64,000 nucleotides of DNA from Rufibacter glacialis (GTDB taxonomy: Bacteria > Bacteroidota > Bacteroidia > Cytophagales > Hymenobacteraceae): the NCBI RefSeq assembly GCF_008271745.1, contig NZ_VKKZ01000019.1:372001-436000 (forward strand), given 5' to 3'. The stretch's first letter is position 1. Every line of letters begins with the position of its first letter. Positions 3,978-63,300 of this stretch are shown here, in pieces. Position numbers and translations under genes: made by a program. Under the pieces are notes generated by a model. The model had not been told where the DNA came from, searched no databases, and was given only the letters and a program-made list of their open reading frames with translations.

Positions 3978-4015
3978 AGTTTTCCGCCTGTTTTATGAAA
4001 AGCAGGCGGAAAACG
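3978..4015. repeat. Dispersed intergenic palindrome (TTTTC/GAAAA family), near-perfect copy
   Basis: Arms GTTTTCCGCCTGTTTT and AAAAGCAGGCGGAAAAC are separated by a short ATG loop. It lies just 5' of the Gfo/Idh/MocA gene. Best-paired member of the family set out in the findings. Confidence 0.8.
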
Positions 4016-4034
4016 GATTTGGATTGCTGTTGTT

Positions 4035-4152
4035 GTACGGACAGGTCGCGACCTGTCCTTGCGGTAGTTCAAAGCAATACAGGTTGCTTATTGCCAAGAT
4101 TGTTGGGCTGTGGCGTGGGGAACGTTTAGGACAGGTCGCGACCTGTCCGTAC
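4035..4152. repeat. Two copies of a perfect 20-bp palindrome in inverted setting
   Basis: GGACAGGTCGCGACCTGTCC occurs at 4039-4058 and 4129-4148. The outer flanks pair as well (TGTAC before the first copy, GTACT after the second), so the whole block can fold as one large inverted repeat. The same 20-mer is found again at 63046-63065. It lies between two minus-strand genes of the glycan locus. Confidence 0.85.
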
Positions 4153-4174
4153 TACCATCGCATCGCATTTGTGA

Positions 4175-5179
4175 TTACATGGTCACAATGGCCTTCATGA
4201 AGCCGTCTGGTCTTTCCACCAAGGCGGCGAAGGCCTCGTCCATTTTCTCCAGCGGGAAGGTGTGGGTGTAGAGCAGGTCTGGGTTCAGGCGGCCGCTTTC
4301 TACGGCTTCCACGGCTTCCTTCATGCCTTCCAGGTACATCTGCGGGTCGCGTTCGTGGGCGTTGATCACGTCCAGGCCGCGCCAGTTCCAGAGCTGGATG
4401 TTCACCTGGCGCATACCGTCCTGGTGGAAACCGGCAATGATAAGGCGGCCGCGTTCTTTGGTCAGCTCTCCCGCCAGGTTCAGGGGCCATTCTTTGCCGG
4501 TGCACTCAATCACGCGGTCGCAGAAAACACCACCAGTGAGTTCTTTCACCTGCTCAATGATCTTGTAGTGGTCATCCATGGTTATGGTTTCATGGGCGCC
4601 GCACTGTTGGGCAATGTCCAAAGAGAACGGGCGCTGGGAGATGGCAATAACCCTGGCTCCCGCCTCTTTGGCCAATTGAACCAACAAAGCCCCTAAAAAC
4701 CCGATGCCCAGAATGGCCACGGTCTGTCCGGCTTTGATGTCTGATCGTTTGAAGATGTTCAGGGCGCAGCCCAGGGGCTCGCCGGGGAACGGTTTGCCGG
4801 CCAGGGCCGCTGGCAGTTTCACCACGGCGGTGGCCTCTGCCAGGTCATAGGCGGCGTAAGAATTGTAGGAGAGCGCGGCCACGCGGTCGCCTTCCTGAAA
4901 GTCTTTCACCTCGGCGCCTACGGCGTCAATAACTCCCCAGCCTTCATGGCCGGGATTGCCCGCGGCCACCGGGTAGGTAAACCACTCGCGGCCTTCCCAC
5001 ACGGGAATGTTGGAGGCGCACAGGCCGCAGCCTTCCAGTTTGATGCGTACCTGGGTGGCAGATGGTTCTGGCAGCGCCACCTCCTGGATTTCTACTTGCT
5101 GGGGTGCCGTCAGTACCGCGGCGGGCATGGTGGTGGCCACCGCGGTGTCTGGGGTGTCTTGGAAAAGAGAAGTTTGCAT
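4175..5179 (-). CDS. Zinc-type medium-chain alcohol/sugar dehydrogenase
   Basis: A 334-residue member of the MDR superfamily. The GroES-like domain holds the catalytic-zinc ligands C51 (GCGLCASN) and the GHEGWG motif at 77-82. The nucleotide-binding fold has GIGFLGALLVQLAKEAGA from 158. The four-cysteine structural-zinc lobe that normally follows GHE is absent, as in some bacterial sugar and threonine dehydrogenase-like subfamilies. It probably oxidises an alcohol of a sugar or polyol with NAD(P). The start lies 2 nt beyond the stop of the fusion gene, so the pair is tightly coupled. Confidence 0.9.
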   Translation of the reverse strand: MQTSLFQDTPDTAVATTMPAAVLTAPQQVEIQEVALPEPSATQVRIKLEGCGLCASNIPVWEGREWFTYPVAAGNPGHEGWGVIDAVGAEVKDFQEGDRVAALSYNSYAAYDLAEATAVVKLPAALAGKPFPGEPLGCALNIFKRSDIKAGQTVAILGIGFLGALLVQLAKEAGARVIAISQRPFSLDIAQQCGAHETITMDDHYKIIEQVKELTGGVFCDRVIECTGKEWPLNLAGELTKERGRLIIAGFHQDGMRQVNIQLWNWRGLDVINAHERDPQMYLEGMKEAVEAVESGRLNPDLLYTHTFPLEKMDEAFAALVERPDGFMKAIVTM

Positions 5180-5181
5180 GG

Positions 5182-7251
5182 TTAAGCTACAGCTACGTTA
5201 TCGGTTTCTTGCTCCACGGCAGAGGAGGAAGGTACTTCCAGGGAGACCTCCAGGCCTCTGGTCTCGCAGAGCCATTGGTACAGTTTGGCCACGCCTTCGG
5301 GCACGTTGTTCTTAGGGTACCAGCCGGTGGCCTCATGGAACTTCTGAATGTCAGAGACATAGTAATGCTGGTCACCGGGCCGCCAGTCACCAAAGCTCAA
5401 GTTTACTTTTTTACCGCGGTAAGTGCCAATCAGGTCCAGTAATTCCAGCAGGCTGGTGGTGTTTTTCACGCCGCCGCCAATGTTGAAGGCCTGGCCAGAC
5501 AGCTCCTGGATGTTCTCCTGGGCCAGCAGGAAGGCATCCACTAAGTCCTCCACAAAGAGGATGTCGCGCACCTGCTTGCCGTCGCCGTAAATACTGATGG
5601 CTTTGTTCTCAATGGCCCTGATGGCGAAGTGCGCCACCCAGCCCTGGTCTTCGTTGCCGTACTGGTGTGGACCGTAGATGCAGCTCATCCTGAACACCAC
5701 CGCCGGAAGGCCGTAGGTCCGGGCGTAGTCGATCACGTACTGGTCGGCGGCGCCTTTAGAGCAGCCGTACGGGCTATGAAAGTCCAACGGACGGGTCTCA
5801 GAGATGCCTCTGGCCAGAATGTTCTTATCTGAGGGGTTGTAGCGGGTTTTGTCTGGCAGGAACTGGAGGTCTTCCAGGCCGCCGTACACTTTGTTGGTGG
5901 AGGTGAAGACCAGCGGGGGCGGCGTTTTCTGCGCCCTGATGGCTTCCAGCACGTTCACCACGCCGCGCGCGTTGATCTCAAAGTCCTGGATAGGGCCGGT
6001 CAACGAGGTGGTCACGGCTACCTGCGCCGCGAAATGGTACACTTCATCGGCGTACTTCATCACCCGCTTCACCGATTGCAGGTCCCGGATGTCACCCACG
6101 TAGACCTCCAGCTTGTCGCCGTAGGTTTCATGGAGCCACTGCAGGTTGCGTTCCACGCCGGTGCGGGAGAGGTTGTCAAAGATCAGGACGCGCTTGCCCT
6201 GGTCCAGAAGACGCTTGGCCAGGTTGGTGCCCACAAATCCGGCCCCGCCGGTGACAATGGAATAACGCTCCTCTTCTGAGAAGTCCGTCTTGCGGCGGAT
6301 GAAGGAGAACTTGTGCAGGTTTTCCAGGCCGTTTTCGGCCCAGAGGCGGTAAAGCAGCTTGGGAGTGCCGTCGGTGTGTTTCAGACCGAAGAAATATTCG
6401 CGGTCATCCACGTGAAACCCGCCCACGGTGGAGCGGTCCAGGTCCAGGTCATGCAGGCTGTACCAGTAGACTTTGTCTACGGGCGTCTGGCATACGTTGC
6501 GGAACTCCTGGAGCTGCTTGAACTCATCATGCTGCCAGGTGGAGAAGCCGGCCTCGGTGATCCAGAGCTGGGCGGTGGATCCATGACGGTCCAGCACCTC
6601 GCGCACGCGGGCGATGTTGGTTTCCCAGCCTTCCCACATCTGGTCAAAGACATCGGGGAACCCGTGAATGCCCACGGCGTCAATGTACTGCATCACGCCG
6701 CGTTCAAACATGACCTGGAGCCAGTTGGGGTCAATGGGGCTCATGCCCCCCAGCACGGTTTTTTTGCCGCGATGCTGGGCCCAGTGGGCGGCATTGCCGA
6801 TCATCTCCGCGAACTTGTGCCAGCTGTGGTCCAGGGTGTAGTCGTATTCAACTTTGTTGTTGGGCTCGTTCCAGAGTTCCACCCACTCAAAATGCGCGCC
6901 CAGGTCCGTGATGATCACGTCCAGGAAATCGGCGTACGCCTTGAGGTCACGGGGGGGAGAGGAGGTTTTGGCCACTTCGCCCAAGGAGGGAGGCGTGTAC
7001 AGGAAGCAGGGCAGGATCTTTACCTGCTGGGCCAGCGTGGGGATCAACCAGTCATACCAGGCTTTGCCGGTAGGCGTGTAGTAGTCGGCCCAGGAGATGC
7101 CGGTGCGCAGTTCAGTCACACCCAATTCCTTGAGTTCTGAGAGTACTTGCTCCACGCGGGCATGTTCGCCCACCTGGAACCATTCTACCACCCCAATGGT
7201 AGGGGCGGCGAGGGGAGTATGGATAGGTTGTGAATTTGCGGTTTGGTTCAT
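5182..7251 (-). CDS. Fusion: glycoside hydrolase-like TIM barrel + CDP-paratose 2-epimerase-like SDR
   Basis: A 689-residue two-domain protein. Residues about 15-315 look like a clan GH-A (GH5/GH39-like) barrel: VELWNEPNN places a candidate acid/base Glu at 129, and LWITEAGF a candidate nucleophile Glu at 233. Residues about 330-665 are an extended SDR with GGAGFVG at 335-341, STNKVYG at 451-457 and SPYGCSKGAADQY with Tyr495/Lys499. This part resembles RfbE/Tyv, the CDP-paratose 2-epimerase, including DNLSRTGVERNLQWL and GDGKQVRDIL. Both halves keep their catalytic residues. No signal peptide is seen, so the hydrolase-like domain would be cytoplasmic, which is unusual. It is coupled to the dehydrogenase gene 2 nt downstream. 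Joint function is unknown. Confidence 0.85.
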   Translation of the reverse strand: MNQTANSQPIHTPLAAPTIGVVEWFQVGEHARVEQVLSELKELGVTELRTGISWADYYTPTGKAWYDWLIPTLAQQVKILPCFLYTPPSLGEVAKTSSPPRDLKAYADFLDVIITDLGAHFEWVELWNEPNNKVEYDYTLDHSWHKFAEMIGNAAHWAQHRGKKTVLGGMSPIDPNWLQVMFERGVMQYIDAVGIHGFPDVFDQMWEGWETNIARVREVLDRHGSTAQLWITEAGFSTWQHDEFKQLQEFRNVCQTPVDKVYWYSLHDLDLDRSTVGGFHVDDREYFFGLKHTDGTPKLLYRLWAENGLENLHKFSFIRRKTDFSEEERYSIVTGGAGFVGTNLAKRLLDQGKRVLIFDNLSRTGVERNLQWLHETYGDKLEVYVGDIRDLQSVKRVMKYADEVYHFAAQVAVTTSLTGPIQDFEINARGVVNVLEAIRAQKTPPPLVFTSTNKVYGGLEDLQFLPDKTRYNPSDKNILARGISETRPLDFHSPYGCSKGAADQYVIDYARTYGLPAVVFRMSCIYGPHQYGNEDQGWVAHFAIRAIENKAISIYGDGKQVRDILFVEDLVDAFLLAQENIQELSGQAFNIGGGVKNTTSLLELLDLIGTYRGKKVNLSFGDWRPGDQHYYVSDIQKFHEATGWYPKNNVPEGVAKLYQWLCETRGLEVSLEVPSSSAVEQETDNVAVA

Positions 7252-7296
7252 AGCGTTTTTAAGCTTCTTTGGGGAAAACAGGTTACAAACGCGGCT

Positions 7297-8415
7297 TTAT
7301 ACCGTCAAGCCCCGGGAGGCTAACTCAGCGCTTGCTTCGCTCACGCGGTCATAGGCAATCTGTCCCTCCAGCCAGTCGGCCAGTTCTGTTAAACCGCTGT
7401 TGAACTCTACCTGCGGATAGAAGCCCAGTACTTCTTGGGCCAGGCTGATGTCAGCGTAGCAATGCCGGATGTCGCCTACGCGGTATTTGCCGGTGATCTC
7501 TGGCATTAAATCGCTCTTGCCCATGACCTCGGCCAGGCGCTCGCCTATTTCCCTGATGGTGTAGTTGTTGCCGCTGCCCACGTTGAAGACCTGCCCGTTG
7601 GCTTCTTCTTTCTCCATGGCCAGGCGGCAGGCCAGGGCCACGTCACGGACGTGCACGAAATCACGCTGCTGGTTACCGTCTTCAAAAATCATGGGCGCGT
7701 TGTTGTTCAGGAAGCGCGAGGCGAAGATAGCCAGCACACCGGTATAGGGGTTAGAAAGCGCCTGCCGCGTGCCGTACACGTTAAAGAAACGCATGGCCAC
7801 CGTAGGAATGTTGTAGGCGCGGCCCACCATGAGGCAAAGGCGCTCCTGGTCATACTTAGACAGCGCGTAAACGGAGGAAAGGCACGGAATCTTGGACTCT
7901 GGCGTGGCCACGGGGGTTAAGGTTCCGCCTTTGGCGTCGCTCAGTTCCCAGTTGCCGGCTTTGAGCTGCTCCAGGCCCCGCTCGGCGGCCATCACCATCT
8001 CACCGGAAGTGGATTGGTACAAGCCTTCGCCGTAAATGCTCATGCTGGAGGCCACCACCAGTTTACTCACTGGTTTCTCAATAAGGCACTCTAACAGCAC
8101 GGCCGTGCCGATGTTGTTCACATCTGTATATTCCTTGATCTCATACATGCTCTGGCCCACGCCCACCATGGCGGCAAAGTGGAACACGGCGTCTACGCCT
8201 TCCAGGGCTTTGAGTACGGCGGCTTTGTCGCGCACGTCGCCTACCTGCAGCTCTACCGCCGGGTTCAGGTATTCTGGGCGCTCGCAGTTCTTGCCGTGCA
8301 CCTGCTCAGAAAGATTATCCAGGGCGCGTACCTCGTACCCAAATTGCAGTAGCTCATCTGCCAGGTGCGATCCAATAAAGCCAGCACCGCCGGTAATCAA
8401 GACTTTCTTTTTCAT
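7297..8415 (-). CDS. NAD-dependent NDP-sugar epimerase/dehydratase
   Basis: A 372-residue extended SDR. GGAGFIGSHLADELL (9-23) binds NAD; the catalytic pair is Tyr183/Lys187 in SVYALSKYDQE; RDFVHVRDVA at 251-260 is the usual sugar-nucleotide segment. The insertion between about 130 and 175 and the overall layout resemble dTDP-L-rhamnose 4-epimerase or UDP-glucose 4-epimerase relatives, but the substrate cannot be fixed by reading. It sits 45 bp before the fusion gene and 27 bp after the small SDR gene, in the same transcript direction, and is likely a precursor-making enzyme for the glycosyltransferases downstream. Confidence 0.92.
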   Translation of the reverse strand: MKKKVLITGGAGFIGSHLADELLQFGYEVRALDNLSEQVHGKNCERPEYLNPAVELQVGDVRDKAAVLKALEGVDAVFHFAAMVGVGQSMYEIKEYTDVNNIGTAVLLECLIEKPVSKLVVASSMSIYGEGLYQSTSGEMVMAAERGLEQLKAGNWELSDAKGGTLTPVATPESKIPCLSSVYALSKYDQERLCLMVGRAYNIPTVAMRFFNVYGTRQALSNPYTGVLAIFASRFLNNNAPMIFEDGNQQRDFVHVRDVALACRLAMEKEEANGQVFNVGSGNNYTIREIGERLAEVMGKSDLMPEITGKYRVGDIRHCYADISLAQEVLGFYPQVEFNSGLTELADWLEGQIAYDRVSEASAELASRGLTV

Positions 8416-8442
8416 AATGGTAAAGGGGAAATGAAAGGGGAA

Positions 8443-9692: not shown

Positions 9693-10252
9693 AGGCAGTT
9701 ACAAACTGCCCGTCAAGGTAGGTCCAAGTTGAAAACTTGAACCAGGGTAGTGTTGGGAAGAAGGTATATGACCAGCTAGAACTCGTTATGGCACGGAGTA
9801 CCTTTCGTGGCTAACGATGTAAAAAGATAAAGGCACGGTAATAAACCCGCGCCATAGAGACGGGAGCCAAGACCTCACAGGTTTTGAAAACCTGTGAGGT
9901 CTATTACAACCTGCTCACGCATTGCCTGTTCCAGTCTTTCCTTCGAGCGCCTCGCTTTTGGCCCTAGAAAGGCTAATACTAAGAAAGAAGAACCCATCAG
10001 GCCGAAAGGGCAGTGCGAGAGGGGAAGACGGGGCCCCGCGGCCGTGAGCGCTTAGCGGCAGCTATGGAAAGAGCTGTACCTGGATCAACGCTGGAAACGG
10101 AACAGCGAAGAGAATAACGTAATGCGTGCATAAAACCGTTTTGAGCGGAAAAGAGGCAGGAGAAGGGTTTGAAGTGAACATCACAACAGCGGTACATATC
10201 AGTAAAGGGTTCTAATCTGCAAACGTGAGACAAGGCAGTGCCTTGTCTCTAC
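9693..10252 (+). repeat. Composite palindromic element, copy 1
   Basis: Modules from left to right: alpha (9693-9743, GGCAGTTACAAACTGCC and AAGTTGAAAACTT), zeta (9787-9856, degenerate inverted repeat ending GCGCCATAG), beta (9870-9902, AGACCTCACAGGTTTT with its reverse complement), epsilon (about 9914-10150, with the core GGCCGTGAGCGCTTAGCGG) and delta (10226-10252, GAGACAAGGCAGTGCC with TTGTCTC). The same order occurs inverted at 31.5-32.2 kb, and beta-epsilon-delta occur at 50.36-50.75 kb. No transposase is inside. Confidence 0.85.
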
Positions 10253-10312
10253 AATCATCCATAATGGCAGAATAGCCTGAGCAACTGCCTACCTCAGACA
10301 AAAAGCAACATC

Positions 10313-10355
10313 AAAAAAAAACGCCTCTAAAACAGCAGAGCAGTTTTAGAGGCGT
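10313..10355 (-). terminator. Rho-independent terminator of the CNNM-type gene
   Basis: Stem ACGCCTCTAAAAC / GTTTTAGAGGCGT (10321-10333 with 10343-10355). An A-run at 10313-10320 reads as a U-run on the minus strand. It lies 29 nt beyond the stop at 10384. Confidence 0.9.
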
Positions 10356-10383
10356 TTTCAGAAAACAGCCTGAAAAGGCACGC

Positions 10384-15674: not shown

Positions 15675-15711
15675 TGTTTTAAGGCAGTTTTAGGAAAATC
15701 ACGCCAGAAAG
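15675..15711. repeat. Dispersed intergenic palindrome copy
   Basis: GTTTTAAGGCAGTTTTAGG then AAAATCACGCCAGAAAGG; degenerate arms. It lies between the lipoprotein gene and the isoaspartyl peptidase gene. Confidence 0.45.
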
Positions 15712-21759: not shown

Positions 21760-21800
21760 AACGCGTTTTGGCCTGTTGCCTTGAAATTAGCCTAAAAACA
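21760..21800. repeat. Dispersed intergenic palindrome copy
   Basis: CGTTTTGGCCTGTTGCC then TTGAAATTAGCCTAAAAAC. It lies in the 645-bp gap between trxA and the transposase; the rest of that gap (21424-21759) shows no gene. Confidence 0.55.
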
Positions 21801-21804: not shown

Positions 21805-21962
21805 AACCGCCGTTCGAGATTTAGCAAACCGCTGTTCTGGATTTACAATCCCGGACTTACCTGTGGAGATTTACCAATCCCGGTGCTGGCCAGTTAGGTA
21901 AGCGGGTGCACGGGGATTAGAAAATACCCGACAGAAGGCTTCCGGATTGGTAAATCCGGAAG
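21805..21962. repeat. REP-like palindromes on the 3' side of the RAYT gene
   Basis: A run of degenerate units (GAGATTTAGCAAACCG, GGATTTACAATCCC, GAGATTTACCAATCCC) ends in a well-formed palindrome at 21939-21962 (TTCCGGATT … AATCCGGAA). The last 54 bp (21909-21962) repeat directly at 22771-22824 on the other side of the transposase gene. Confidence 0.85.
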
Positions 21963-22017
21963 CGCAAAGTTTTGAGGTAGAATCGCAAAGAGGAGGGAGG
22001 AGGAGGCCCTAAATAAC

Positions 22018-22563
22018 TTAGTCTGGTAGTAGTACTTTTAGCAAGCCGGGCATGCCCGCATAGTCTTGGGCAGAACTGTAGAGGTAATGCTCGGGTTCCA
22101 GTACCCATTCTGCCCTCACCGGGTTTTGGTGGATGTAATTGAGTTTTTGCTGCAGAAATTCATTAGAGTGAATTTCTTTTGCTTCGTTCCCCTCCTGCCA
22201 GAATTGATGGTTGGTCACTTTGCTTTTCACGTTGGCCGGAAATTGAAACCGGTGTAGCATCCATTCCTTTCTGCTCTCGTTTTCCTTTTGAATGGCTTCT
22301 ACCAAACTTCTGCTGGTAAATTTCTTGAAGTCCCGGAGAATGTTAGACAAGTGAAATCCTTCTTTGGCTGAAGCAATCAGGTGTAGGTGGTTGCTCATCA
22401 GAACCCACGCATAAATCTCCAAGCCTTTCTTTTCCTGGCAGAATTTAAGGGAATCAATTATGATATGCCGATAAACTGGGCGCGTAAAAACATCTACCCA
22501 ATCCACCACTGTCAAAGTTAAATAGTAGAGATAGCCCTCATGGATTTTGTTTTTGATGCCCAT
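22018..22563 (-). CDS. REP-associated tyrosine transposase (RAYT, Y1/IS200-like)
   Basis: The likely start is the ATG at 22563 (MGIKNKIHEGYLYYLTLTVV), giving 181 residues. The HUH/Y1 fold is shown by YLYYLTLTVVDWVDVFTRP, the metal-binding histidine pair in MSNHLHLIA, and FKKFTSRSLVEAI with a downstream helix; KLNYIHQNPVRAEWV is the typical RAYT end. The frame stays open upstream to 22881, but that part is low complexity (QQQQQ) and translates the palindromic repeats themselves. RAYTs are domesticated single-copy transposases thought to spread REP palindromes. The matching palindromes flank this gene on both sides. Confidence 0.92.
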   Translation of the reverse strand: MGIKNKIHEGYLYYLTLTVVDWVDVFTRPVYRHIIIDSLKFCQEKKGLEIYAWVLMSNHLHLIASAKEGFHLSNILRDFKKFTSRSLVEAIQKENESRKEWMLHRFQFPANVKSKVTNHQFWQEGNEAKEIHSNEFLQQKLNYIHQNPVRAEWVLEPEHYLYSSAQDYAGMPGLLKVLLPD

Positions 22564-22830
22564 GCAGAAACCTACGGTGCTGCCACTTAATCTGTTGTAC
22601 CCAGACCGCTGTAGTTGCTGTAAGGTGCTTTTAGTTTTATTCAATTGCTGCAATTGCTGTTCGGGATTTATCAATCGCTGCTGTTGCTGCTGTTCGGGAT
22701 TTACCAATCCCGAACCACTCTGTCGGGGATCTCCAGATCCCCGTTGCCCGCCCATTGAAAAAAGCGTGGGCACGGGGATTGATAAATCCCCGACAGAGAA
22801 ATTCCGGATTGGTAAATCCGGAAGAGCGGA
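22564..22830. repeat. REP-like palindromes on the 5' side of the RAYT gene
   Basis: Units such as GGGATTTATCAATCGCTG, CGGGATTTACCAATCCCG, CGGGGATCTCCAGATCCCCG and GGGGATTGATAAATCCCC, then the 54-bp direct repeat at 22771-22824 ending in TTCCGGATT … AATCCGGAA. A (CTG)n-like tract (TGCTGTTGCTGCTG) sits between units. Confidence 0.85.
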
Positions 22831-31515: not shown

Positions 31516-32215
31516 TCTTCTGTAGAGACCAGGCACTGCCTTGTCTCACGTTCGCAGAGGAAAACCTTTTCCTCTGGATGAACCGTCATAGCTGGGGTGC
31601 ACTTTAGCATTTTCGTCTGCTCTTCTTTCGGCTTTTTGCATTTAAGGTATGCTTATGTGCATGCATTTGGTCCTTGCTGGCGTAGCGAGTGCATTTAGCG
31701 AGGCCCTTATGCCGCCTGGTTGCATTGCTGCCCTCCGTGCGCTCACGGCCGCGAGGCCCCGTCTTCCCCGCTCGCACTGCCCTTTCGGCCTGAACAGTCT
31801 GTTTCTCTTAGCATGTGTCTATCTATGGCCAAAAGCGAGGCGCGCTCGGGAATGACTGGAACAGGGAAAAGTTAGGAAAGGTGGTTATATAGACAACTGT
31901 AGAGACCAGGCACCGCCTTGTCTCTTACGCATTCCTTTCTCCTGCAAAGGTGTTCCCTTCCTGGGAAAGATGGCGGTGGTAGACCTCACAGGTTTTGAAA
32001 ACCTGTGAGGTCTTGGCTCCCCTTTATGGCGCGGATTTATTTCCGTGCCTTTCCCTTCCTGTATTGTTAGTCACGGAAGTAAATCCGCGCCATAGTAGAA
32101 ACCTTTCAACCTTAGCCGCCTTTCCTGACTCATATACAATCCTTCCCCCAACAAAATTAACCCAGGGTTCAAGTTTTCAACTTGAACCCAAAATGCCTGA
32201 AGTTTGAAACTACAG
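31516..32215 (-). repeat. Composite palindromic element, copy 2 (inverted)
   Basis: Read right to left: alpha (32165-32215), zeta (arms 32025-32047 and 32072-32094, 22 of 23 pairs, core GGCGCGGATTTATTTCCGTG), beta (31981-32013), an extra delta (31899-31924), epsilon (about 31655-31880) and delta (31522-31548). This is the order of copy 1 turned round. It fills most of the 1.0-kb gap between the MFS and transglycosylase genes. In epsilon the short frame kept in the other two copies is shifted. Confidence 0.85.
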
Positions 32216-35493: not shown

Positions 35494-35523
35494 AAACCGT
35501 GGATTCTTAGAAGTCCTTTTTTT

Positions 35524-35554
35524 GGGCTGTTTTCTGAAAACATGCCTAAAACAG
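35524..35554. repeat. Dispersed intergenic palindrome, reference copy
   Basis: GGGCTGTTTTCTGAAAACAT then GCCTAAAAC. It shows the whole consensus: a GGGC arm, TTTTC/GAAAA inner stem, a GCC arm and a TAAAAC tail. The gap 35454-35815 otherwise holds a promoter and a terminator and no gene. Confidence 0.75.
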
Positions 35555-50360: not shown

Positions 50361-50749
50361 AGACCTCACAGGTTTACCTGTGAGGTCTACCATTGTCTAC
50401 TCACGCATAACCTATTCCAGTCTTTCCTTCGAGCGCCTCGCTTTTGGCCCTGGATAAACGATTGCTAAGCAGAACAGACAGCTCAGGCCGAAAGGGCAGT
50501 GCGAGAAGGGAAGACAGGGCCTCGCGGCCGTGAGCGCTTAGCGGCGGCTATGCAAAGAGCCGTACTTGGATCAACGCCAGCAGCGGAAATACCAAGGGAA
50601 TAGCGTATCGCATGCACAAAACAGCTATAAGCAGAAGCAGAGAGGAAGGGCAGAGGCAATTGGTGCAGGAACCGCCATCTACGACAGTCCATCATTTAGA
50701 GGAGCCTTTTCCTCTGCGAGCGTGAGACAAGGCAGTGCCTTGTCTCTAC
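50361..50749 (+). repeat. Composite palindromic element, copy 3
   Basis: beta (50361-50388, AGACCTCACAGGTTTACC form with a short loop), epsilon (about 50398-50640, with GGCCGTGAGCGCTTAGCGG and CGAGCGCCTCGCTTTTGGCC) and delta (50722-50749, GAGACAAGGCAGTGCC then TTGTCTC). The alpha and zeta modules of copies 1 and 2 are missing. It fills most of the 760-bp gap before pyrF. Confidence 0.85.
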
Positions 50750-50890
50750 CATACATCACAAAAGATAAAATCCATAATGGAAAAAATAAAGGAAAGGCGC
50801 TATTGCCCAGAAACCATGAACTCCTAGCGACCGCTTGGAGACAGCAAAGCTCCAGCTCCCCTAGGTCATTATCTTCAACGTCTATTTTTC

Positions 50891-50919
50891 GCCTGTTTTC
50901 CCTGAAACAAAGCGAAAAC
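50891..50919. repeat. Dispersed intergenic palindrome copy directly upstream of the pyrF -7 element
   Basis: GCCTGTTTTCCCTGAAAC then AAAGCGAAAAC; 4 nt before TAGCTTTG. Confidence 0.6.
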
Positions 50920-51783: not shown

Positions 51784-51795
51784 GCGTTATTGCTT

Positions 51796-51824
51796 AATTC
51801 TGAAATAAATAGCCCATAAACGGG
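51796..51824. repeat. Dispersed intergenic palindrome copy
   Basis: AATTCTGAAATAAATAGCCC then ATAAACGGG, 13 nt after the pyrF stop; half-length copy. Confidence 0.45.
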
Positions 51825-55264: not shown

Positions 55265-55331
55265 ATTTAAGACACAGGACATAAGACGTAAGACACAAGA
55301 CATAGGACTGATTTTTGTCATTTTCTGATTT

Positions 55332-55364
55332 CGGGCTGTTTTCCTTAAATTTGCCCTTAAATAG
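55332..55364. repeat. Dispersed palindrome copy containing a -7 element
   Basis: CGGGCTGTTTTCC then TTAAATTTGCCC and TTAAATAG. The perfect promoter octamer is part of the right half. Confidence 0.6.
55346..55353 (+). promoter_or_regulatory. -7 promoter element of trhO
   Basis: Perfect TAAATTTG. The ATG is at 55445, so the leader is about 85 nt and includes the right oligonucleotide array. Confidence 0.55.
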
Positions 55365-56413: not shown

Positions 56414-56434
56414 ACCATACCCACCAAAGTGGAT

Positions 56435-56572: not shown

Positions 56573-57436
56573 ATGGCCCGTATTCCAGAATCTGAATTAA
56601 TCCTGAACCCAGATGGCAGTATCTACCACCTGAACCTGCTGCCCGAGCAGATCTCTGATACCATTATCACGGTGGGGGACCAGGACCGGGTGGCGCGGGT
56701 GAGCCGCCATTTTGATTCGCTGGAGGTGCAGGTAGCCAAGCGGGAGTTTGTGACCCACACCGGTTATTACAAAGGCAAGCGCATCTCCGTGGTGTCTACC
56801 GGCATTGGCACCGACAACATTGACATTGTGATGAATGAGCTGGACGCGCTGGTGAACATAGACTTCGTGAGCCGCGAGGCCCTGGAGGCGGAAGACCGGA
56901 TCTCGCTCAGGATTGTGCGCATCGGCACATCGGGCGCCTTGCAGCAAGACGTGCCCCTGGGTAGCCATCTGGCCACAGAATACGCGGTAGGCCTGGACAC
57001 GCTCATGCAGTTCTACCCGCTCATGGAAACCGGCTATGAGACAGAGATCGCCGTGAACCTGCAACTGGCGCTGGGCCTGGGATTCTTGCCCTACTGCGCC
57101 AAAGGCTCAGACCTGCTGCGGGAGCAGATCGCCTTTGACATGATCCATGGCCATACCTTCACCTGTCCGGGGTTCTATGCCCCGCAAGGTCGCTTGCTGC
57201 GCCTGCAGCCTAAGATTGAAGACGTGATCCAGAAGATGAGCAACTTCCGGTTTGAAGACGTGGTCTTCACCAATTTTGAGATGGAGACCGCGGGTATCTA
57301 CAGCCTGGGCCGCTTGCTGGGCCATGAGGTGCTATCCCTCAACGCTATTGTGGCCAACCGCATCAACCATCAGTTCGCCCCCAACCCTGAGGCCGTTGTT
57401 GATGACCTTATTGTGAAGGTGCTGGACCGTATTTAG
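56573..57436 (+). CDS. Nucleoside phosphorylase (PNP/UDP family)
   Basis: The ATG at 56573 (MARIPESELILNPDGSIYHL) gives 287 residues. The frame is open 144 nt upstream, but that part is Cys/Trp-rich and contains the trhO terminator, so it is rejected. ITVGDQDRVARVS (phosphate side), VVSTGIGTDNIDIVMNELD, RIGTSGALQ and the purine/pyrimidine-side FEMETAGIYSLGRLLGHE fit uridine phosphorylase-like enzymes. It cleaves nucleosides with phosphate in salvage. The 3' end is marked by a perfect 25-bp hairpin. Confidence 0.93.
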   Translation: MARIPESELILNPDGSIYHLNLLPEQISDTIITVGDQDRVARVSRHFDSLEVQVAKREFVTHTGYYKGKRISVVSTGIGTDNIDIVMNELDALVNIDFVSREALEAEDRISLRIVRIGTSGALQQDVPLGSHLATEYAVGLDTLMQFYPLMETGYETEIAVNLQLALGLGFLPYCAKGSDLLREQIAFDMIHGHTFTCPGFYAPQGRLLRLQPKIEDVIQKMSNFRFEDVVFTNFEMETAGIYSLGRLLGHEVLSLNAIVANRINHQFAPNPEAVVDDLIVKVLDRI

Positions 57437-57455
57437 GGTTTTTTTCAAAAATCAA

Positions 57456-57511
57456 CCTATAAACGGAAGGGCCTTTGGTAATGAACTACCAAAGGCCCTT
57501 CCGTTTATAGG
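57456..57511 (+). terminator. Perfect 25-bp hairpin after the nucleoside phosphorylase gene
   Basis: The left arm at 57456-57480 (CCTATAAACGGAAGGGCC, then TTTGGTA) and right arm at 57487-57511 are exact complements, loop ATGAAC. It has no U-run on either strand. Its first bases belong to a dispersed palindrome copy (57434-57466). Confidence 0.75.
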
Positions 57512-57546
57512 TGCCAATCTTGCAGCCATTTCAGCTGGGAGAAGCC

Positions 57547-57846: not shown

Positions 57847-57960
57847 GGTACGCTTGTTTAAAGTTGGTCTGTAAGCTTGGTGAAAAAACGAATTCTACCT
57901 ATACAAACGGTTTTTAACACAATTTGGCTATGGAAAATCAAGGCAAAGGGTCTTATATGG

Positions 57961-57998
57961 TGTTTTAGGGTAGTTTTTTAGAACCAGCCCTAAAACCA
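57961..57998. repeat. Dispersed intergenic palindrome copy at the acyl-CoA reductase stop
   Basis: TGTTTTAGGGTAGTTTTTTA then GAACCAGCCCTAAAACCA. It ends one base before the stop codon at 58000 and has the full TTTTAGGG/CCCTAAAA outer stem. Confidence 0.75.
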
Positions 57999-57999
57999 A

Positions 58000-59019
58000 T
58001 TAAAGTGTCTTCAGGAACTCCAAGGTATCTATCCCGTCGGCATAATCGCTGACGGCGGGGCATTGCGCCTGCCCAAAAGCGTAGCTGTTAGGCCAGAGGG
58101 CTTCCTGGGAAACCACGCACTGGAGCTTCTCTTTGATGGCCTCCAACTTCTGCGCCAGTTCCTGGTCATGGGCGTAGGTTTCATAAAACAGCACCGAAAT
58201 AGGAGAGACCAGCGCCTGGCTCTCCGTCACCATCAGGAACCCGTTGTCCAGGTGAGGTACGCCGTTTACCAGATAAATAGACTTGTTGTAGTCATAGTTG
58301 TTCTGGTATTTGTGGTGGTTTACTACCTCTTTCTTGTATTCCAGAGCCTCAAACAAAGGAGAGAAGTCGTAGCCTTCGGGCACAAATGCTTTGGCCACGT
58401 TGCGGCAGCCCAGGCCGTAGTACCGCAGAATGTCGTCTCCCAGGGCGGTGAGTTCCTCTTTGGTTTCTTTGCCCGTGAGCACGGCCACGCTGGTGCGGTT
58501 CTTTCTGATGATGTGCGGCCTTTTGGCGAAGTAATACTCAAAGTAGCGGGCAGTGTTGTCTGAGCCGGTGGCAATGATGGCATCAGCGGTTTTCAGCATC
58601 TGCACCAACTGGATCTGCTCCTGGAAACCAGGCTCGAGCTCTACCAGTTTGTCCAGGAGGTGCGGCACCAGGAATGGGTCATCTGAACTGGGTTTGGCGT
58701 GCAGGATATGGCCGGCCAGAAGAATGCACAGCGCGTCATGGAACCCCACGGCCGGTATGTTGCCCGCCATCACCACGCCTACCTTCTTAGGGGCTTCATT
58801 GACTTGAGGGAAACCATAGCCTGCAATCCAGGCCGTCAACTGATTTTTCTCCAGCATGCCGGCCAGTCCGTCCAGCGCCGCTGAAACATTAGGTACGTCA
58901 AAGAAGTTATTGTGCTGGCCGGCCCGGCGGGCCAGGTATTCGCGCTCCTCCTGCGGAAGGTCCCGGAGGTATTCGCCTAATTTTATGAAGGCGGAGAGTC
59001 TGTGTTCTAAAGTTAACAT
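58000..59019 (-). CDS. Acyl-CoA reductase (LuxC-like)
   Basis: A 339-residue aldehyde-dehydrogenase-fold protein. GVVMAGNIPAVGFHDALCIL (about 81-100) and IATGSDNTARYFEYYF (149-164) are family blocks, and the catalytic-type Cys205 is in RYYGLGCRNVAKAFVP. Relatives reduce acyl-CoA or acyl esters to aldehydes with NADPH. The gene is divergent from the two-cluster ferredoxin gene, an arrangement conserved in many Bacteroidota, which suggests a shared redox task. The substrate is unknown. Confidence 0.88.
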   Translation of the reverse strand: MLTLEHRLSAFIKLGEYLRDLPQEEREYLARRAGQHNNFFDVPNVSAALDGLAGMLEKNQLTAWIAGYGFPQVNEAPKKVGVVMAGNIPAVGFHDALCILLAGHILHAKPSSDDPFLVPHLLDKLVELEPGFQEQIQLVQMLKTADAIIATGSDNTARYFEYYFAKRPHIIRKNRTSVAVLTGKETKEELTALGDDILRYYGLGCRNVAKAFVPEGYDFSPLFEALEYKKEVVNHHKYQNNYDYNKSIYLVNGVPHLDNGFLMVTESQALVSPISVLFYETYAHDQELAQKLEAIKEKLQCVVSQEALWPNSYAFGQAQCPAVSDYADGIDTLEFLKTL

Positions 59020-59049
59020 GAAGGGGTAACAGTGGATGCGTGAGAAACG

Positions 59050-59081
59050 TTTGATACAATGCGCGCTAGGTATTACTTTTG
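59050..59081 (+). promoter_or_regulatory. Promoter of the ferredoxin gene
   Basis: TTTG (59050-59053), 20-nt spacer, perfect TACTTTTG (59074-59081). GCGCGC occurs on both sides of the -7 element (59061-59066 and 59081-59086), a possible operator. Confidence 0.75.
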
Positions 59082-59123
59082 CGCGCAGGATGGCGTACCT
59101 GCTAGTGGGTGCAAAATTACTAA

Positions 59124-59495
<372 letters not shown>

Positions 59496-59517
59496 ACTTT
59501 CCATAAAGCTATTCAGG

Positions 59518-59541
59518 AAACCCGCCTCGTGCGGGTTTTTT
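59518..59541 (+). terminator. Terminator of the ferredoxin gene
   Basis: AAACCCGC, loop CTCGT, GCGGGTTTTTT, 22 nt after the stop. Confidence 0.9.
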
Positions 59542-59550
59542 GTTGTAAGG

Positions 59551-59588
59551 CGTTATGGGGCTGTTTTCTGTAAAACAACCGCAAAACG
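59551..59588. repeat. Dispersed intergenic palindrome copy
   Basis: CGTTATGGGGCTGTTTTC then TGTAAAACAACCGCAAAACG. Confidence 0.65.
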
Positions 59589-59601
59589 CTAGCTGAACAA
59601 T

Positions 59602-60049
59602 GACACTCGTAGGACCTTCGGACACTACGAGGTCTTAACCCGTTAGCGCAAGTTGGCAGCTCGCGTCCGTACGCATTGCAAATCAAAACTCACCCTCTTT
59701 TGTCATCCTGAAAGGATCTTGTGCACAAGCGGTAAAGTCGTTTCTTCAGCGCCTTTCTAGTTCGCCCACAAGATCTTTACAAAATGACAGATAGTGGGAG
59801 AGTTTCCCATTCGCTTCGGTCTGTCCCCTGAAAGACCGAAGTAATGCCGCCTCGGAAGATGCTTTGTCCTGTCAGGGGAAAGGCGAACTAGAAAGGCATT
59901 GACTCATGAGGTACTACCGTTCGTTACCAAGATCCTTTCAGGATGACAAAAGGGAGTTGGGCTTTTATCTGCAATACGCGCCAACATAAGGTGCAAGCTC
60001 GCGCCAGCGGAGAAAAGACCTCGTAGTGTCCGGAGGTCCTACGAGTGTC
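59602..60049. repeat. Four-layer nested inverted repeat
   Basis: Outermost arms 59602-59636 and 60015-60049 pair at 34 of 35 positions (GACACTCGTAGGACC ...). Next, GCGCAAGTTGGCAGCTCGCG-like sequence faces GTGCAAGCTCGCGCC. Third, 59698-59720 and 59929-59951 are exact complements (TTTTGTCATCCTGAAAGG ...). Fourth, GCCTTTCTAGTTCGCC (59751-59766) faces GGCGAACTAGAAAGGC (59882-59897), with a small hairpin at 59814-59841 in the middle. It fills the 748-bp gap between ferredoxin and valS and has no frame that looks coding. Confidence 0.85.
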
Positions 60050-60058
60050 TCACCCAGC

Positions 60059-60098
60059 CCCGTTTACCCTTTGTTTTTAGCAAAACAAGCCTGAAACT
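60059..60098. repeat. Dispersed intergenic palindrome copy
   Basis: CCCGTTTACCCTTTG then TTTTTAGCAAAACAAGCC and TGAAACT; between the nested repeat and the valS promoter. Confidence 0.5.
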
Positions 60099-60161
60099 GA
60101 TTTCTCACTCAAAGTAGAAGGTCTAATCTGCCGCAACTACCGGCTTCTAATTACAAATTAC

Positions 60162-60169
60162 TATTTTTG
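60162..60169 (+). promoter_or_regulatory. -7 promoter element of valS
   Basis: Perfect TATTTTTG; leader of about 68 nt to the ATG at 60244. No T-box-like structure is visible. Confidence 0.55.
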
Positions 60170-60243
60170 CAGACACACGTGACAGGTGCCGGTTCTGCCA
60201 ACATAGCACATCAGCACCTTAAAAAATTAGCACATTACCCAAG

Positions 60244-62877
60244 ATGTCCATTCCTAAGACCTATAACCCCAAAGAAGTAGAAGACAAGTGGTATGCCACC
60301 TGGCTGGAGCGCGGCTTTTTCAAGTCGAAGCCTAACCCCAAGAAGCAGCCCTACACCGTGGTTATTCCGCCGCCCAACGTAACAGGCGTGCTGCACATGG
60401 GCCACATGCTCAACAATACCATTCAGGATGTGCTGGTGCGCCGCGCGCGCATGCAGGGCAAAGAGGCCTGCTGGGTACCCGGTACCGACCATGCCTCTAT
60501 TGCCACCGAGGCCCGCGTAGTAGCCATGCTCAAGGAGAAAGGCATCAGCAAAAGTGACCTTACCCGCGAGGAGTTCCTGCAACACGCCTTTGAGTGGAAA
60601 GAGAAATATGGCGGCATCATTCTGGAGCAACTCAAGAAACTAGGTGCCTCCTGCGACTGGGACCGCACCCGTTTCACCATGGAGCCAGCCTTGACCGATG
60701 CCGTGATTCAGGTATTCGTGGACCTGTACCGCAAAGGACAGATCTACCGCGGTGTGCGCATGGTGAACTGGGATCCGCAGGGCATGACCGCGCTTTCTGA
60801 CGAGGAAGTGAATTTCAAGCAGGTAAACGGCAAACTGTACTACCTGCGCTACGCCATAGAAGGTTCAGACGAAGTCCTCACCGTAGCTACCAAACGCCCG
60901 GAGACCATCATGGGCGATGTGGCCATCTGCGTGCACCCCGAAGACCCGCGTTACCAGCACCTCGCGGGCCAGAAAGCCATTATCCCGCTGGTGAACCGCG
61001 CCATTCCTATCATCTTTGATGAATACGTAGACCGCGAGTTCGGGACGGGCGTACTGAAAGTAACCCCGGCGCACGACATCAATGACTACGAGTTGGGCCA
61101 AAAGCACAACCTACCTAGTATTGACGTGCTCAACGACAACGGCACCATCCATGAGCGCGCCGGCCTGTACGTAGGCGAAGACCGCTTTGTGGTGCGCAAG
61201 AAAATCACCAAAGACCTGGATGCCCAGGGCCTGCTGGAGAAAGTAGAGGATTCCGTGTCTAACGTAGGTTTCTCTGAGCGTACTGATGCCGTGATTGAGC
61301 CCAAGCTGTCTATGCAGTGGTGGTGCAAGATGGACGCCATGGCCAAACCGGCGCTGGAGAACGTCATGAACGACACCATCAAGCTGCACCCGGCCAAGTT
61401 CAAGAACATGTACCGTTCCTGGATGGAGAACGTGCACGACTGGTGTATCTCGCGCCAACTGTGGTGGGGCCAGCAGATTCCGGCCTATTATCTGCCAGAC
61501 GGCACCTTTGTGGTGGCCCGCACCGCCCAGGAAGCCCTGGAAGAAGCCCGTGCCAAAACCGGGAACCCAGAACTGCAGTTAACCGATCTTCGCCAGGACG
61601 AAGACGTGCTGGATACCTGGTTTTCTTCGTGGCTGTGGCCTATCTCCGTGTTTGACGGTTTCCAAGACCCGGACAACGAGGATATCAACTATTACTACCC
61701 CACCAATGACCTGGTGACCGCCCCGGAGATCCTGTTCTTCTGGGTAGCGCGCATGATCATGGCGGGCTATGAATTCCGGAAGGAACTGCCGTTCCAGAAC
61801 GTGTACCTCACCGGGATCGTGCGTGACGCGCAGGGCCGCAAGATGTCTAAATCCCTGGGCAACTCGCCAGACCCGCTGGTGCTCATTGAGCAGTACGGCG
61901 CAGATGGGGTGCGGGCCGGTATGTTGTTCAGTTCTCCCGCCGGGAACGACCTGTTGTTTGACGAGAAACTCTGCGAGCAGGGCCGTAACTTCAGCAACAA
62001 GATCTGGAACGCGTTCCGTCTCATCAACGGCTGGGAAGTAGAGGAGAACCTGGAGAACCCGAACGAGAAAGCCATCAAGTGGTTTGACTCCAAGTTCAAC
62101 GAGGCGCTCAACGTGCTGGAAGACCATTTTGACAAGTTCCGGATCTCAGACGCCTTGCTCACCGTGTACAAACTGGTGTGGGATGATTTCTGCTCTAACT
62201 ACCTGGAGATGATCAAACCTGCCTTCGGGTCACCCATTGACACAGATACCTGGCAGGCCACCAATGAGTTCCTGGAGAAACTGATGAAAGTGCTGCACCC
62301 GTTCATGCCGTTCATCACAGAGGAAATCTGGAACTCCATGAAAGAGCGCGCGCCTAAAGATTGCCTGGTGGTAGCCGCCTGGCCAGAGAAAGGTAGAATT
62401 GAGGCTGATTTGCTGAAACAGACCGAATACGTGCTCAACGTGGTAGGCCAGATCAGAAACCAACGCAACAGCAAAAATATTTCACCAGCCAAAAAGCTGG
62501 CGCTGTACGTGCGGTTGGCGGAAGGTAAGAGCGCCATTGCCGGCTACGAGACCTTGGTGAGCAAACTGGCCAACCTGAGTGAGATCCAGGAGACCGAACA
62601 GCCGCTGGACAATTCCCTGTCCTTTGTGGTAGAGAGCGCTGAGTTCTTTATTCCCATGGAGGGCAATATTGACGCTGCTGCTGAACGCGAGCGCATCTTG
62701 AAGGAACTGGACTACACCAAAGGCTTCCTGGCCAGTGTGGCTAAAAAGCTGAGCAACGAACGCTTCGTGAGCGGTGCCCCAGAAGCCGTGATCACCGCAG
62801 AGCGCAAGAAGCAATCTGACGCTGAAGCCAAAATAGCGGCCCTGGAGCAAAGCCTCTCCGCCTTGCCGGCTGAATAG
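60244..62877 (+). CDS. valS: Valyl-tRNA synthetase
   Basis: An 877-residue class I aminoacyl-tRNA synthetase. The HIGH-type motif is HMGH at 51-54 in [13 protein letters not shown], and KMSKS is at 533-537 in [14 protein letters not shown]. The editing (CP1) domain lies between them ([20 protein letters not shown]). The anticodon-binding helical domain and a C-terminal coiled coil ([20 protein letters not shown]) complete it. Length and order are normal. It charges tRNA-Val and hydrolyses mischarged Thr-tRNA. Single gene; terminator at 62895-62940. Confidence 0.98.
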
Positions 62878-62894
62878 CCTTAACTTGAATTGAT

Positions 62895-62940
62895 AAAAAA
62901 GAAAGCGGCTGCTCCCAAAGGGGCAGCCGCTTTCTTTTTT
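62895..62940 (+). terminator. Terminator of valS
   Basis: Perfect 18-bp stem AAAAAAGAAAGCGGCTGC with its complement, 10-nt loop, T-run. Confidence 0.93.
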
Positions 62941-62962
62941 GCAAGGTTAAGATATTAAGTTA

Positions 62963-63262
62963 TCTGGCGCGAGCCTCCAGGCTACTCTCACTGCCTTGAG
63001 CCGCAAAACAAACAATGGGGCGGATTTACCTAGCAGATAAAGTAGGGACAGGTCGCGACCTGTCCTTACGCATTCCTGGTAAACATGCATTCCTGATCAA
63101 ATAGCCTGCAGTTACAGCGGACACTTGGGACTATAGCATTCCTCTCATAACTCCCCGTGAATCGCTAGGCTCGCGTTATTCAGAGCACCAGACTGGAATC
63201 TCGCGCCAGTTGGGCCAGTTGGTTTTGTTAGACCTGTGAGGTTTTCGAAACCTCACAGGTCT
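62963..63262. repeat. Inverted repeat block with gamma and beta modules
   Basis: Outer pair TCTGGCGCGAGCCTCCAGGC (62963-62982) and GACTGGAATCTCGCGCCAG (63191-63209). Inside is the gamma palindrome GGACAGGTCGCGACCTGTCC at 63046-63065. To the right, beta at 63230-63262 has its arms swapped (AGACCTGTGAGGTTTTCG then AAACCTCACAGGTCT). It fills the gap between valS and the last gene. Confidence 0.7.
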
Positions 63263-63270
63263 TTCGATTA

Positions 63271-63300
63271 AAGCCTTTTTTCCAAAACCAGCCCCTAAAC
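63271..63300. repeat. Dispersed intergenic palindrome copy at a stop codon
   Basis: AAGCCTTTTTTCC then AAAACCAGCCCCTAAAC; ends one base before the stop at 63302. Confidence 0.55.

What the first reader, a model, noticed from the sequence alone, without database searches (positions are those of the whole stretch)
3978..63300. A dispersed 30-40 bp palindrome in nearly every intergenic gap
The consensus is roughly GTTTTAGGGCTGTTTTC followed by TGAAAACAGCCCTAAAACG. Copies seen: 3978, 10352, 14199, 15675, 20966, 21760, 26761, 27242, 29920, 32321, 35524, 35781, 36444, 37184, 39591, 40121, 43068, 43171, 44168, 50261, 50891, 51796, 55332, 57434, 57961, 59551, 60059, 63271 and a weak one near 63929. 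None was noticed inside a gene. Several lie 0-2 nt from a stop codon (35781, 44168, 57961, 63271), others are just upstream of a start. About one per 2 kb is far above chance. Possible roles: a terminator or 3'-end stabiliser, a nucleoid or methylation site, or a REP-like selfish repeat.
Basis: partly seen in the sequence, partly recalled or inferred. Interest (0 to 1): 0.8.

Follow-up and report, generated by a model that had tools for sequence, protein, structure and literature searches.

The report
Bent palindromes at gene boundaries
One genus of bacteria, Rufibacter, carries roughly two thousand copies per genome of a bent, mirror-image DNA motif in the gaps between genes, kept in the same places across species although its letters change, which looks like a binding site for an unknown protein at the borders of transcription units.

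Summary
The palindrome is real. A matrix trained on the window finds 122 hits in 280 kb of held-out own-genome DNA, 105 intergenic; shuffled intergenic DNA gives 0.25. It is a 36-bp dyad, GTTTTnGGnCTGTTTTC-nn-GAAAACAGnCCnAAAAC: four CTGTTTT-like half-sites about 11 bp apart, predicted to bend. A strict pattern matches 16 of 16 genomes of the Rufibacter group, 4 of 188 others of the family (1-2 copies) and 0 of 394 others in a phylum sample. It occupies 101 of 194 own-genome gaps >=60 bp: convergent 28/36, tandem 65/119, divergent 8/39 (53/135 in other species). Orthologous gaps keep it at similar distances from stop codons while letters turn over. Most copies lack the covariation of a paired stem, except at positions 5-6; about 15% sit at the centre of locus-specific inverted repeats. 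It lacks REP tags, and the window's REP transposase has a different palindrome. Best reading, unproven: a bent double-stranded binding site for an unidentified protein at transcription-unit boundaries. Rivals: a tamed REP-like repeat; a terminator part.

The parts
3979..4014 (.). element copy, near-perfect palindrome
   Evidence: 37 bits
   Evidence: 30 bits
   Evidence: 24 bits
10343..10377 (.). element copy, 6 nt past a stop codon
14200..14235 (.). element copy, directly after a terminator-like hairpin and T run
15676..15711 (.). element copy
   Evidence: 32 bits
20952..20987 (.). element copy, just before a terminator-like hairpin
21764..21799 (.). element copy
   Evidence: 23 bits
   Evidence: 23 bits
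26759..26794 (.). element copy, inside a small doubtful ORF
   Evidence: 32 bits
27238..27273 (.). element copy, 7 nt past a stop codon
29927..29962 (.). weak element copy
   Evidence: 17 bits
32323..32357 (.). element copy, after a terminator-like hairpin
35518..35552 (.). element copy
   Evidence: 40 bits
35776..35810 (.). element copy, 5 nt past a stop codon
36443..36478 (.). element copy
   Evidence: 32 bits
37180..37215 (.). element copy
   Evidence: 26 bits
39593..39628 (.). element copy, near-perfect palindrome, 16 nt past a stop codon
40125..40160 (.). element copy
   Evidence: 35 bits
   Evidence: 23 bits
43059..43093 (.). element copy
   Evidence: 33 bits
43167..43202 (.). element copy
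   Evidence: 28 bits
44160..44195 (.). element copy, 4 nt past a stop codon
50261..50296 (.). element copy, after a terminator-like hairpin
50884..50919 (.). element copy; a copy lies 22-37 nt before the same start codon in 6 of 6 species
51786..51821 (.). decayed copy; the same gap carries the element in 6 relatives
55327..55362 (.). element copy, position kept in 7 of 7 species
57429..57464 (.). element copy overlapping the end of a gene, before a terminator-like hairpin
57962..57996 (.). element copy 3 nt past a stop codon; kept 3-5 nt from it in 8 of 8 species
59552..59587 (.). element copy after a terminator-like hairpin
60062..60097 (.). element copy
63266..63300 (.). element copy 1 nt past a stop codon; kept 1-4 nt from it in 7 of 7 species
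63929..63964 (.). element copy, degenerate
   Evidence: 25 bits

Best explanation
Shown: a genus-wide 36-46 bp DNA element with two-fold symmetry, four CTGTTTT-like half-sites (two forward, two inverted) about 11 bp apart, predicted to be intrinsically bent, placed between transcription units and kept at orthologous positions. Inferred: an unidentified sequence-specific DNA-binding protein (dimer or tetramer) binds it as double-stranded DNA, bends it, and so marks the end or boundary of transcription units, limiting read-through and/or the spread of supercoils. The protein, the bound state and the function are inferred; only the sequence anatomy, placement and conservation are shown.
For: Held-out enrichment, almost wholly intergenic. 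Fixed geometry while letters vary: central gap 2 or 1 in 557 of 565 hits >=24 bits in other species (other gaps carried a 4-bit penalty) and 166 of 169 own hits. The 11-base arm alone is not enriched in coding or non-coding DNA outside elements, so the whole dyad is the unit. Positions conserved: 64 of 68 species-by-gap cells in the ten gaps listed (gaps without any copy are not listed), and 162 of 196 syntenic comparisons. Orthologous copies share T/A tracts at 0.91 (non-orthologous copies 0.90) although their flanks share only 0.44. Predicted bend 54 and 63 degrees against 25-26 in dinucleotide shuffles. In most copies the inner arm positions do not covary (388 no-stem copies), and G-U is no commoner than A-C near stop codons (72:73 and 66:65). 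In tandem gaps it lies after a terminator hairpin 50 times, before it 10 and overlapping it 20; the starts after the stem cluster at -2 to 5 nt (19) and 12 to 16 nt (16), with 3 at 7-10 and 12 at 28-51.
Against: No binding protein found: HU and HU-HIG match 1-2 times in all 39 genomes, the histone fold in none, MazE/AbrB in 4. Position relative to the hairpin is not uniform (before, around, after), so one roadblock geometry does not fit all. 61 of 174 divergent gaps hold copies. No copy lies within 300 nt of 5S rRNA in 14 of 14 loci with full flanks (5 genomes), and only 3 of 13 tRNA ends have one. Positions 5-6 covary between arms within species (z 7.0, 7.6) and in no-stem copies (z 8.0, 8.8, pooled), which simple dimer binding does not explain. 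About 15% of copies sit in longer palindromes. In copies after a terminator G-U exceeds A-C (49:33 and 62:40); I put this down to a T-rich left arm, untested.
Confidence: 0.42

Rival explanations
1. REP-like or MITE-like mobile palindromes that spread once in the Rufibacter ancestor, landing next to or inside terminator hairpins where they do little harm, and that are now tolerated or partly tamed.
For: Clade-restricted gain. Avoidance of genes and of short tandem and divergent gaps is what tolerated repeats show. Among the G005 sites listed one identical 36-mer recurs at six scattered places. Near-consensus copy number ranges from 6 to 1182 among congeners.
Against: Position-specific conservation of the T/A tracts is not neutral decay. 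No GTAG or CGTC tag. G007 has no Y1 transposase match at E 0.001 but has the elements. The window's RAYT has its own different palindrome. No clean empty site or target duplication seen among 34 comparisons without a copy.
Confidence: 0.26
2. An RNA-level 3'-end signal: part of intrinsic terminator hairpins, or an mRNA 3' stabiliser.
For: Adjacent to hairpins. Flank pairing of >=4 bp directly outside the element in 97 of 715 copies against about 25 expected. At two orthologous 3' ends the flank pairing is 0.88 and 0.79 against 0.41 and 0.35 between species, with a different pair in 261 of 474 and 280 of 467 paired species comparisons, which are not independent. Rare at tRNA ends and not seen at 5S ends. 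G-U exceeds A-C in copies after a terminator (49:33, 62:40).
Against: No G-U excess where the copy should be transcribed: near stop 72:73 and 66:65; stem class 23:25, 24:27, 24:26; tandem stem arms 34:34 and orthologous stems 1:3 and 3:9. Folding of elements with flanks exceeds a swapped-flank null only slightly (6.62 against 6.16 and 5.84 against 4.66 pairs). No excess of flank pairing in the seven named ValS loci (2 of 83, 2.0 expected) or in G013 (5 of 35, 4.5 expected). Copies after the U-tract should not be in the transcript. Only 14 of 50 tandem stem copies have a T-rich 3' side (40 of 257 no-stem).
Confidence: 0.17
3. A strong DNA gyrase (type II topoisomerase) site at transcription-unit ends, like BIME-2.
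For: Bent, phased, dyad-symmetric and near unit ends. PMC6379681 (passages seen) reports a phased gyrase motif and enrichment downstream of operons in E. coli. A roughly 10-bp GC wave continues outside the core in 482 isolated copies of other species.
Against: That wave is strong in flanks with strong or medium hairpins and not significant in 209 weak-hairpin flanks (p 0.12 and 0.57), and is absent in the own genome (p 0.49). No copy within 300 nt of 5S in 14 of 14 loci, whereas that paper reports gyrase accumulation downstream of rRNA operons.
Confidence: 0.07
4. A DNA uptake or self-recognition sequence kept by biased transformation.
For: High copy number, genus-specific, phased AT tracts; CTGTTTTC is moderately over-represented in coding DNA of the other species (57 against 31-41 in synonymous shuffles).
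Against: The longer arm is not enriched in coding DNA, nor CTGTTTTC in the own genome (9 against 7-12); copies are almost wholly intergenic; no competence data.
Confidence: 0.03

Closest known systems
REP / BIME repeats with RAYT transposases (PMC3733652, passages seen; PMC2817692, listing and start of abstract only)
   Same: 20-40 bp dispersed intergenic palindromes in high copy
   Different: no GTAG/CGTC tag, no RAYT link found, degenerate letters with fixed spacing, positions conserved between species, four half-sites
DNA-curvature signals near prokaryotic promoters and terminators (work cited in PMC4060949, passages seen)
   Same: phased A/T tracts in intergenic DNA near terminators
   Different: here a defined sequence family with GGC and CTG boxes and a dyad, found in one genus
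Gyrase sites / BIME-2 (PMC6379681, passages seen)
   Same: dyad symmetry, roughly 11-bp phasing, downstream of transcription units
   Different: periodic arms not shown independently of hairpins, not found near 5S rRNA, a much stronger sequence consensus
Inverted DUS pairs acting as terminators in Neisseria (recalled; DUS-based repeat families mentioned in PMC2267715, passages seen)
   Same: abundant short motif in inverted pairs near gene ends
   Different: the 11-base arm alone is not enriched; the whole 36-bp dyad is the unit

Membership tests
REP (GTAG/CGTC class) | short high-copy intergenic palindrome | tested here: met
REP (GTAG/CGTC class) | GTAG or CGTC tetranucleotide at one end | tested here: not met
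   symmetrised flank consensus is T-T-C-C/T, no tag
REP (GTAG/CGTC class) | associated RAYT flanked by the repeat | tested here: not met
   G007 has 0 PF01797 matches at E 0.001 yet elements at 0.15-0.45 per kb in five 20-kb stretches; the window's RAYT is flanked by TTCCGGATT..AATCCGGAA palindromes, found in 3 of 264 fetched loci, all three among the 30 loci fetched for Y1 transposases. Element copies do lie somewhere in 10 of the 13 congener Y1 loci of about 3.3 kb, about what their general density gives
MITE / mobile element | empty sites and target-site duplication | tested here: inconclusive
   34 of 196 syntenic comparisons lack a copy >=22 bits; on my reading 14 start from in-gene matches, 14 show decayed copies, 6 are other; none clean
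Intrinsic terminator | GC stem plus U-tract formed by the element itself | tested here: inconclusive
   next to or capping hairpins, but a T-rich 3' side in only 14 of 50 tandem stem copies and no G-U signal in stems
Gyrase site | periodic GC arms out to about 60 bp | tested here: inconclusive
   present over all isolated copies of other species, strong with strong and medium hairpins, not significant in 209 weak-hairpin flanks (p 0.12, 0.57), absent in own genome (p 0.49)
DUS/USS uptake sequence | single motif enriched genome-wide including genes | tested here: not met
   11-base arm not enriched; CTGTTTTC modestly enriched in coding DNA of other species only
Known RNA family | match to an Rfam model at gathering score | tested here: not met
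   0 matches in the window
Protein-bound dsDNA site | a protein that binds it | not testable with these tools
   four guessed families gave no genus-specific candidate

The most novel reading that the evidence does not exclude
Rufibacter evolved a genome-wide insulator system: some 2,000 bent dsDNA sites per genome, bound by a genus-specific architectural protein, that separate neighbouring transcription units (stopping read-through and supercoil spread), with hairpin stems grown around some of them. It would be a bacterial analogue of boundary elements.
Probability: 0.28. Interest if true: 0.88.

Novelty: new variant of a known kind. Interest (0 to 1): 0.66.

Why it matters
Dispersed bacterial palindromes are usually read as selfish repeats or terminator hairpins. 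This family is held at orthologous gene boundaries with fixed DNA geometry and shifting letters, mostly without the covariation of a paired stem. If a protein binds it, it gives a natural, testable case of bacterial transcription-unit boundaries marked on the DNA. The sharp gain on one genus branch, with sister genera as ready controls, makes the question tractable.

Tried and rejected
RNA hairpin as the main constraint: rejected for most copies. Strict 3'-end placement, suggested by the own genome, was softened after 61 of 174 divergent gaps over all species held copies. Gyrase-like long periodicity looked significant but followed neighbouring hairpins. RAYT-driven REP: not supported. Uptake sequence: not supported. 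Versions with the same tract spacing in other genera: no comparable peak in the Pontibacter, Hymenobacter, Adhaeribacter, Mucilaginibacter and Cyclobacteriaceae-type loci fetched. Four guessed DNA-binding families gave nothing genus-specific. Resemblance of the ends to 36-nt type II CRISPR repeats (recalled) was not pursued. Papers: 'Rufibacter'+'palindromic' gave 2 listings, neither relevant by title and abstract; 'Rufibacter'+'intergenic'+'repeat'+'genome' gave 0; 'intergenic palindromic'+'Bacteroidetes'+'terminator' gave 0. Only open-licence PMC papers are searched by that tool.

Weak points: genes were called by a simple codon-usage caller of mine, trained on pooled species for the relatives; the terminator finder is ad hoc; wedge-model angles for bending were recalled, not looked up; copies per genome (0.44 per kb times 5.3 Mb) extrapolate from 384 kb; one search used only copies with the 2-base gap and left out the close pair L021/L022; the permutations (other species) and 85 pool species, those do not; syntenic comparisons count both directions.
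Full report
WHAT IS THERE. The window lies in a 5.32 Mb genome at C10:372001-436000. The seven closest named ValS loci come from Rufibacter and Sabulibacter strains (92-97% identity), so the host belongs to the Rufibacter group. With the refined matrix 384 kb of the own genome holds 169 copies >=22 bits (22 inside called ORFs), 0.44 per kb; 1.31 Mb of other congeners holds 590 (50 inside called ORFs), 0.45 per kb.

ANATOMY. The core is 36 bp (sometimes 35): GTTTT n GG n CTG TTTTC, 2 (or 1) bases, then the mirror image. In the own genome positions 3, 4, 14 and 15 are 91-95% T, position 6 is nearly free and the GC box is intermediate. Weak conservation runs about 4 bp further out (TTC[C/T]), clearer in the other species, so each arm carries two CTGTTTT-like half-sites about 11 bp apart (the half-site reading is mine). 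A wedge model (recalled parameters) predicts 54 degrees of bend in the own genome (n=134) and 63 in the others (n=357), against 25-26 in dinucleotide shuffles and 20-22 in neighbouring DNA. The 11-base arm alone is not enriched in genes or gaps; the 8-mer CTGTTTTC is modestly enriched in coding DNA of the other species (57 against 31-41 in shuffles), not in the own genome (9 against 7-12).

WHERE IT SITS. In own-genome gaps >=60 bp: tandem 65 of 119, convergent 28 of 36, divergent 8 of 39; in the other species tandem 246 of 448, convergent 121 of 151, divergent 53 of 135. In gaps of 60-120 bp, 37 of 128 tandem, 39 of 50 convergent and 2 of 20 divergent ones hold a copy; in divergent gaps of 450-700 bp, 18 of 22 do. 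In the divergent gaps listed it often lies mid-gap, by eye. So it is scarce mainly in operon-like gaps and short promoter regions, and marks boundaries rather than 3' ends alone. It often follows a stop codon by a few nt or abuts a terminator-like hairpin. In tandem gaps the element lies after the hairpin 50 times, before it 10 times and overlaps it 20 times; starts after the stem fall at -2 to 5 nt (19), 7-10 (3), 12-16 (16) and 28-51 (12). No copy lies within 300 nt of 5S rRNA in 14 of 14 loci with full flanks, from 5 genomes (14 further loci are cut by contig ends), and 3 of 13 tRNA ends have one within 260 nt (60 loci scanned).

EVOLUTION. A strict pattern (up to 2 mismatches) matches 16 of 16 genomes of the genus (6 to 1182 copies), 4 of 188 other family genomes (1-2 copies) and 0 of 394 other genomes drawn evenly from the phylum; the reversed-pattern control is 0 in the rows shown. 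The matrix finds copies >=24 bits in 7 of 7 Rufibacter/Sabulibacter ValS loci and 0 of 73 other loci; at >=18 bits 9 of the 73 have one. Ten orthologous gaps around ValS, listed because at least one species has a copy there, are occupied in 64 of 68 species-by-gap cells, often at a near-constant distance from the stop (3-5 nt in 8 of 8; 1-4 nt in 7 of 7). Orthologous copies against non-orthologous ones: tracts 0.91 and 0.90, GC box 0.61 and 0.50, position 6 0.45 and 0.24, flanks 0.44 and 0.26 (140 and 1277 pairs; copies were found by the matrix, so tract identity is partly ascertained). Among 196 comparisons with both flanks aligned, 162 are occupied; of the 34 others I read 14 as starting from in-gene matches and 14 as decayed copies, and none as a clean empty site. 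Vertical inheritance plus selection on the motif, not recent hopping, is the simplest reading. One caution is G005, where an identical 36-mer recurs at six of the listed places.

PAIRING. If the element were an RNA stem, arm changes would be compensated and G-U would exceed A-C in transcribed copies. Permuting within species over 572 copies, the arms covary at positions 5 and 6 (z 7.0, 7.6) and in the flanks -4 to -1 (z 2.1-5.6), but inner positions 7-17 stay at z 2.1 or less. Near stop codons G-U equals A-C (72:73, 66:65); in copies after a terminator G-U exceeds A-C (49:33, 62:40), which I ascribe, untested, to a T-rich left arm. A minority sits at the centre of a locus-specific inverted repeat of up to 18 bp: 97 of 715 copies have >=4 paired flank bases against about 25 expected, with no excess in some species; that is 84 of the 561 tandem and convergent copies, and in those copies the variable arm positions covary too. 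Against this, folding elements with their flanks gives only slightly more flank pairing than swapped flanks. At the 3' ends of TamL (NF052279) and of a paralog, 14 of 16 and 14 of 14 fetched loci have an element (two paralog matches were not fetched). There the flanking stems differ between species yet stay paired (0.88 and 0.79 against 0.41 and 0.35, in 13 and 14 species; different pair in 261 of 474 and 280 of 467 non-independent comparisons), without G-U excess (1:3 and 3:9). This looks like DNA-level palindrome upkeep as much as RNA selection; I cannot separate the two.

BEST READING. Two-fold symmetry without general pairing, fixed spacing, GC and CTG boxes beyond the tracts, and bending together point to a double-stranded site for a dimeric or tetrameric protein at transcription-unit boundaries. 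Shown: sequence, geometry, placement, conservation. Inferred: protein, bending in the cell, effect on read-through or supercoiling. HU and HU-HIG match 1-2 times in all 39 relatives, histone folds in none, MazE/AbrB in 4, so no binder is proposed.

RIVALS AND KINSHIP. It looks like a REP but fails two REP features: the GTAG/CGTC tag and RAYT partnership. G007 has no Y1 transposase match but has the elements, and the RAYT in this window (22018-22563, NF047646 above its cut-off) carries its own palindrome, seen in 3 of 264 fetched loci, all fetched for Y1 transposases. A gyrase-type wrap was considered because PMC6379681 (passages seen) describes a phased motif and enrichment downstream of operons; the extra periodicity is not significant where hairpins are weak. 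The searches brought up no report of this family.

VERDICT. A real, genus-specific, conserved boundary element; mechanism open. Filed as a new variant of a known kind (dispersed intergenic palindromes), with a bolder insulator reading not excluded.

Noticed in passing
window 22018-22563 (-), with repeats 21900-21965 and 22762-22827: A REP-associated tyrosine transposase gene (NF047646) flanked by two copies of a different palindrome (TTCCGGATT..AATCCGGAA), a REPtron-like unit; the same palindrome sits by Y1 transposase loci of G005 and G014 (L137, L147).
   Followed up: partly
window 4039-4062, 4129-4152, 63046-63069: Palindrome GGACAGGTCGCGACCTGTCC, also found exactly in 4 Pontibacter loci and 5 loci of the Rufibacter group, so a separate and wider repeat family.
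   Followed up: partly
window 9870-9902, 31981-32013, 63230-63262; 10222-10249, 31520-31547, 31897-31924, 50719-50746: Further palindromic repeat families with more alike copies (AGACCTCACAGG.. and GAGACAAGGCA..), REP-like in contrast to the degenerate 36-bp element.
   Followed up: no
window 9890-10150 and 50376-50636: A 261-bp direct repeat, 80% identical.
   Followed up: no
L216 1275-1310 (IMG/VR contig IMGVR_UViG_2839759663_000002): The only viral contig with an exact pattern match carries the element directly after a terminator-like hairpin; perhaps a prophage or its flank in a Rufibacter-like host (host not checked).
   Followed up: partly
congener genomes G000-G015: The number of near-consensus copies varies from 6 to 1182 between species although the matrix-based density is of the same order in the stretches sampled; the cause is unknown.
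   Followed up: no
G005 loci L217-L227: One exact 36-mer variant recurs at several scattered sites, flanked by different locus-specific inverted repeats.
   Followed up: partly
elements of all species sampled, positions 5 and 6 of the arms: These two positions match between arms far more than chance within species (z 7.0, 7.6) even where the rest does not pair; unexplained.
   Followed up: partly
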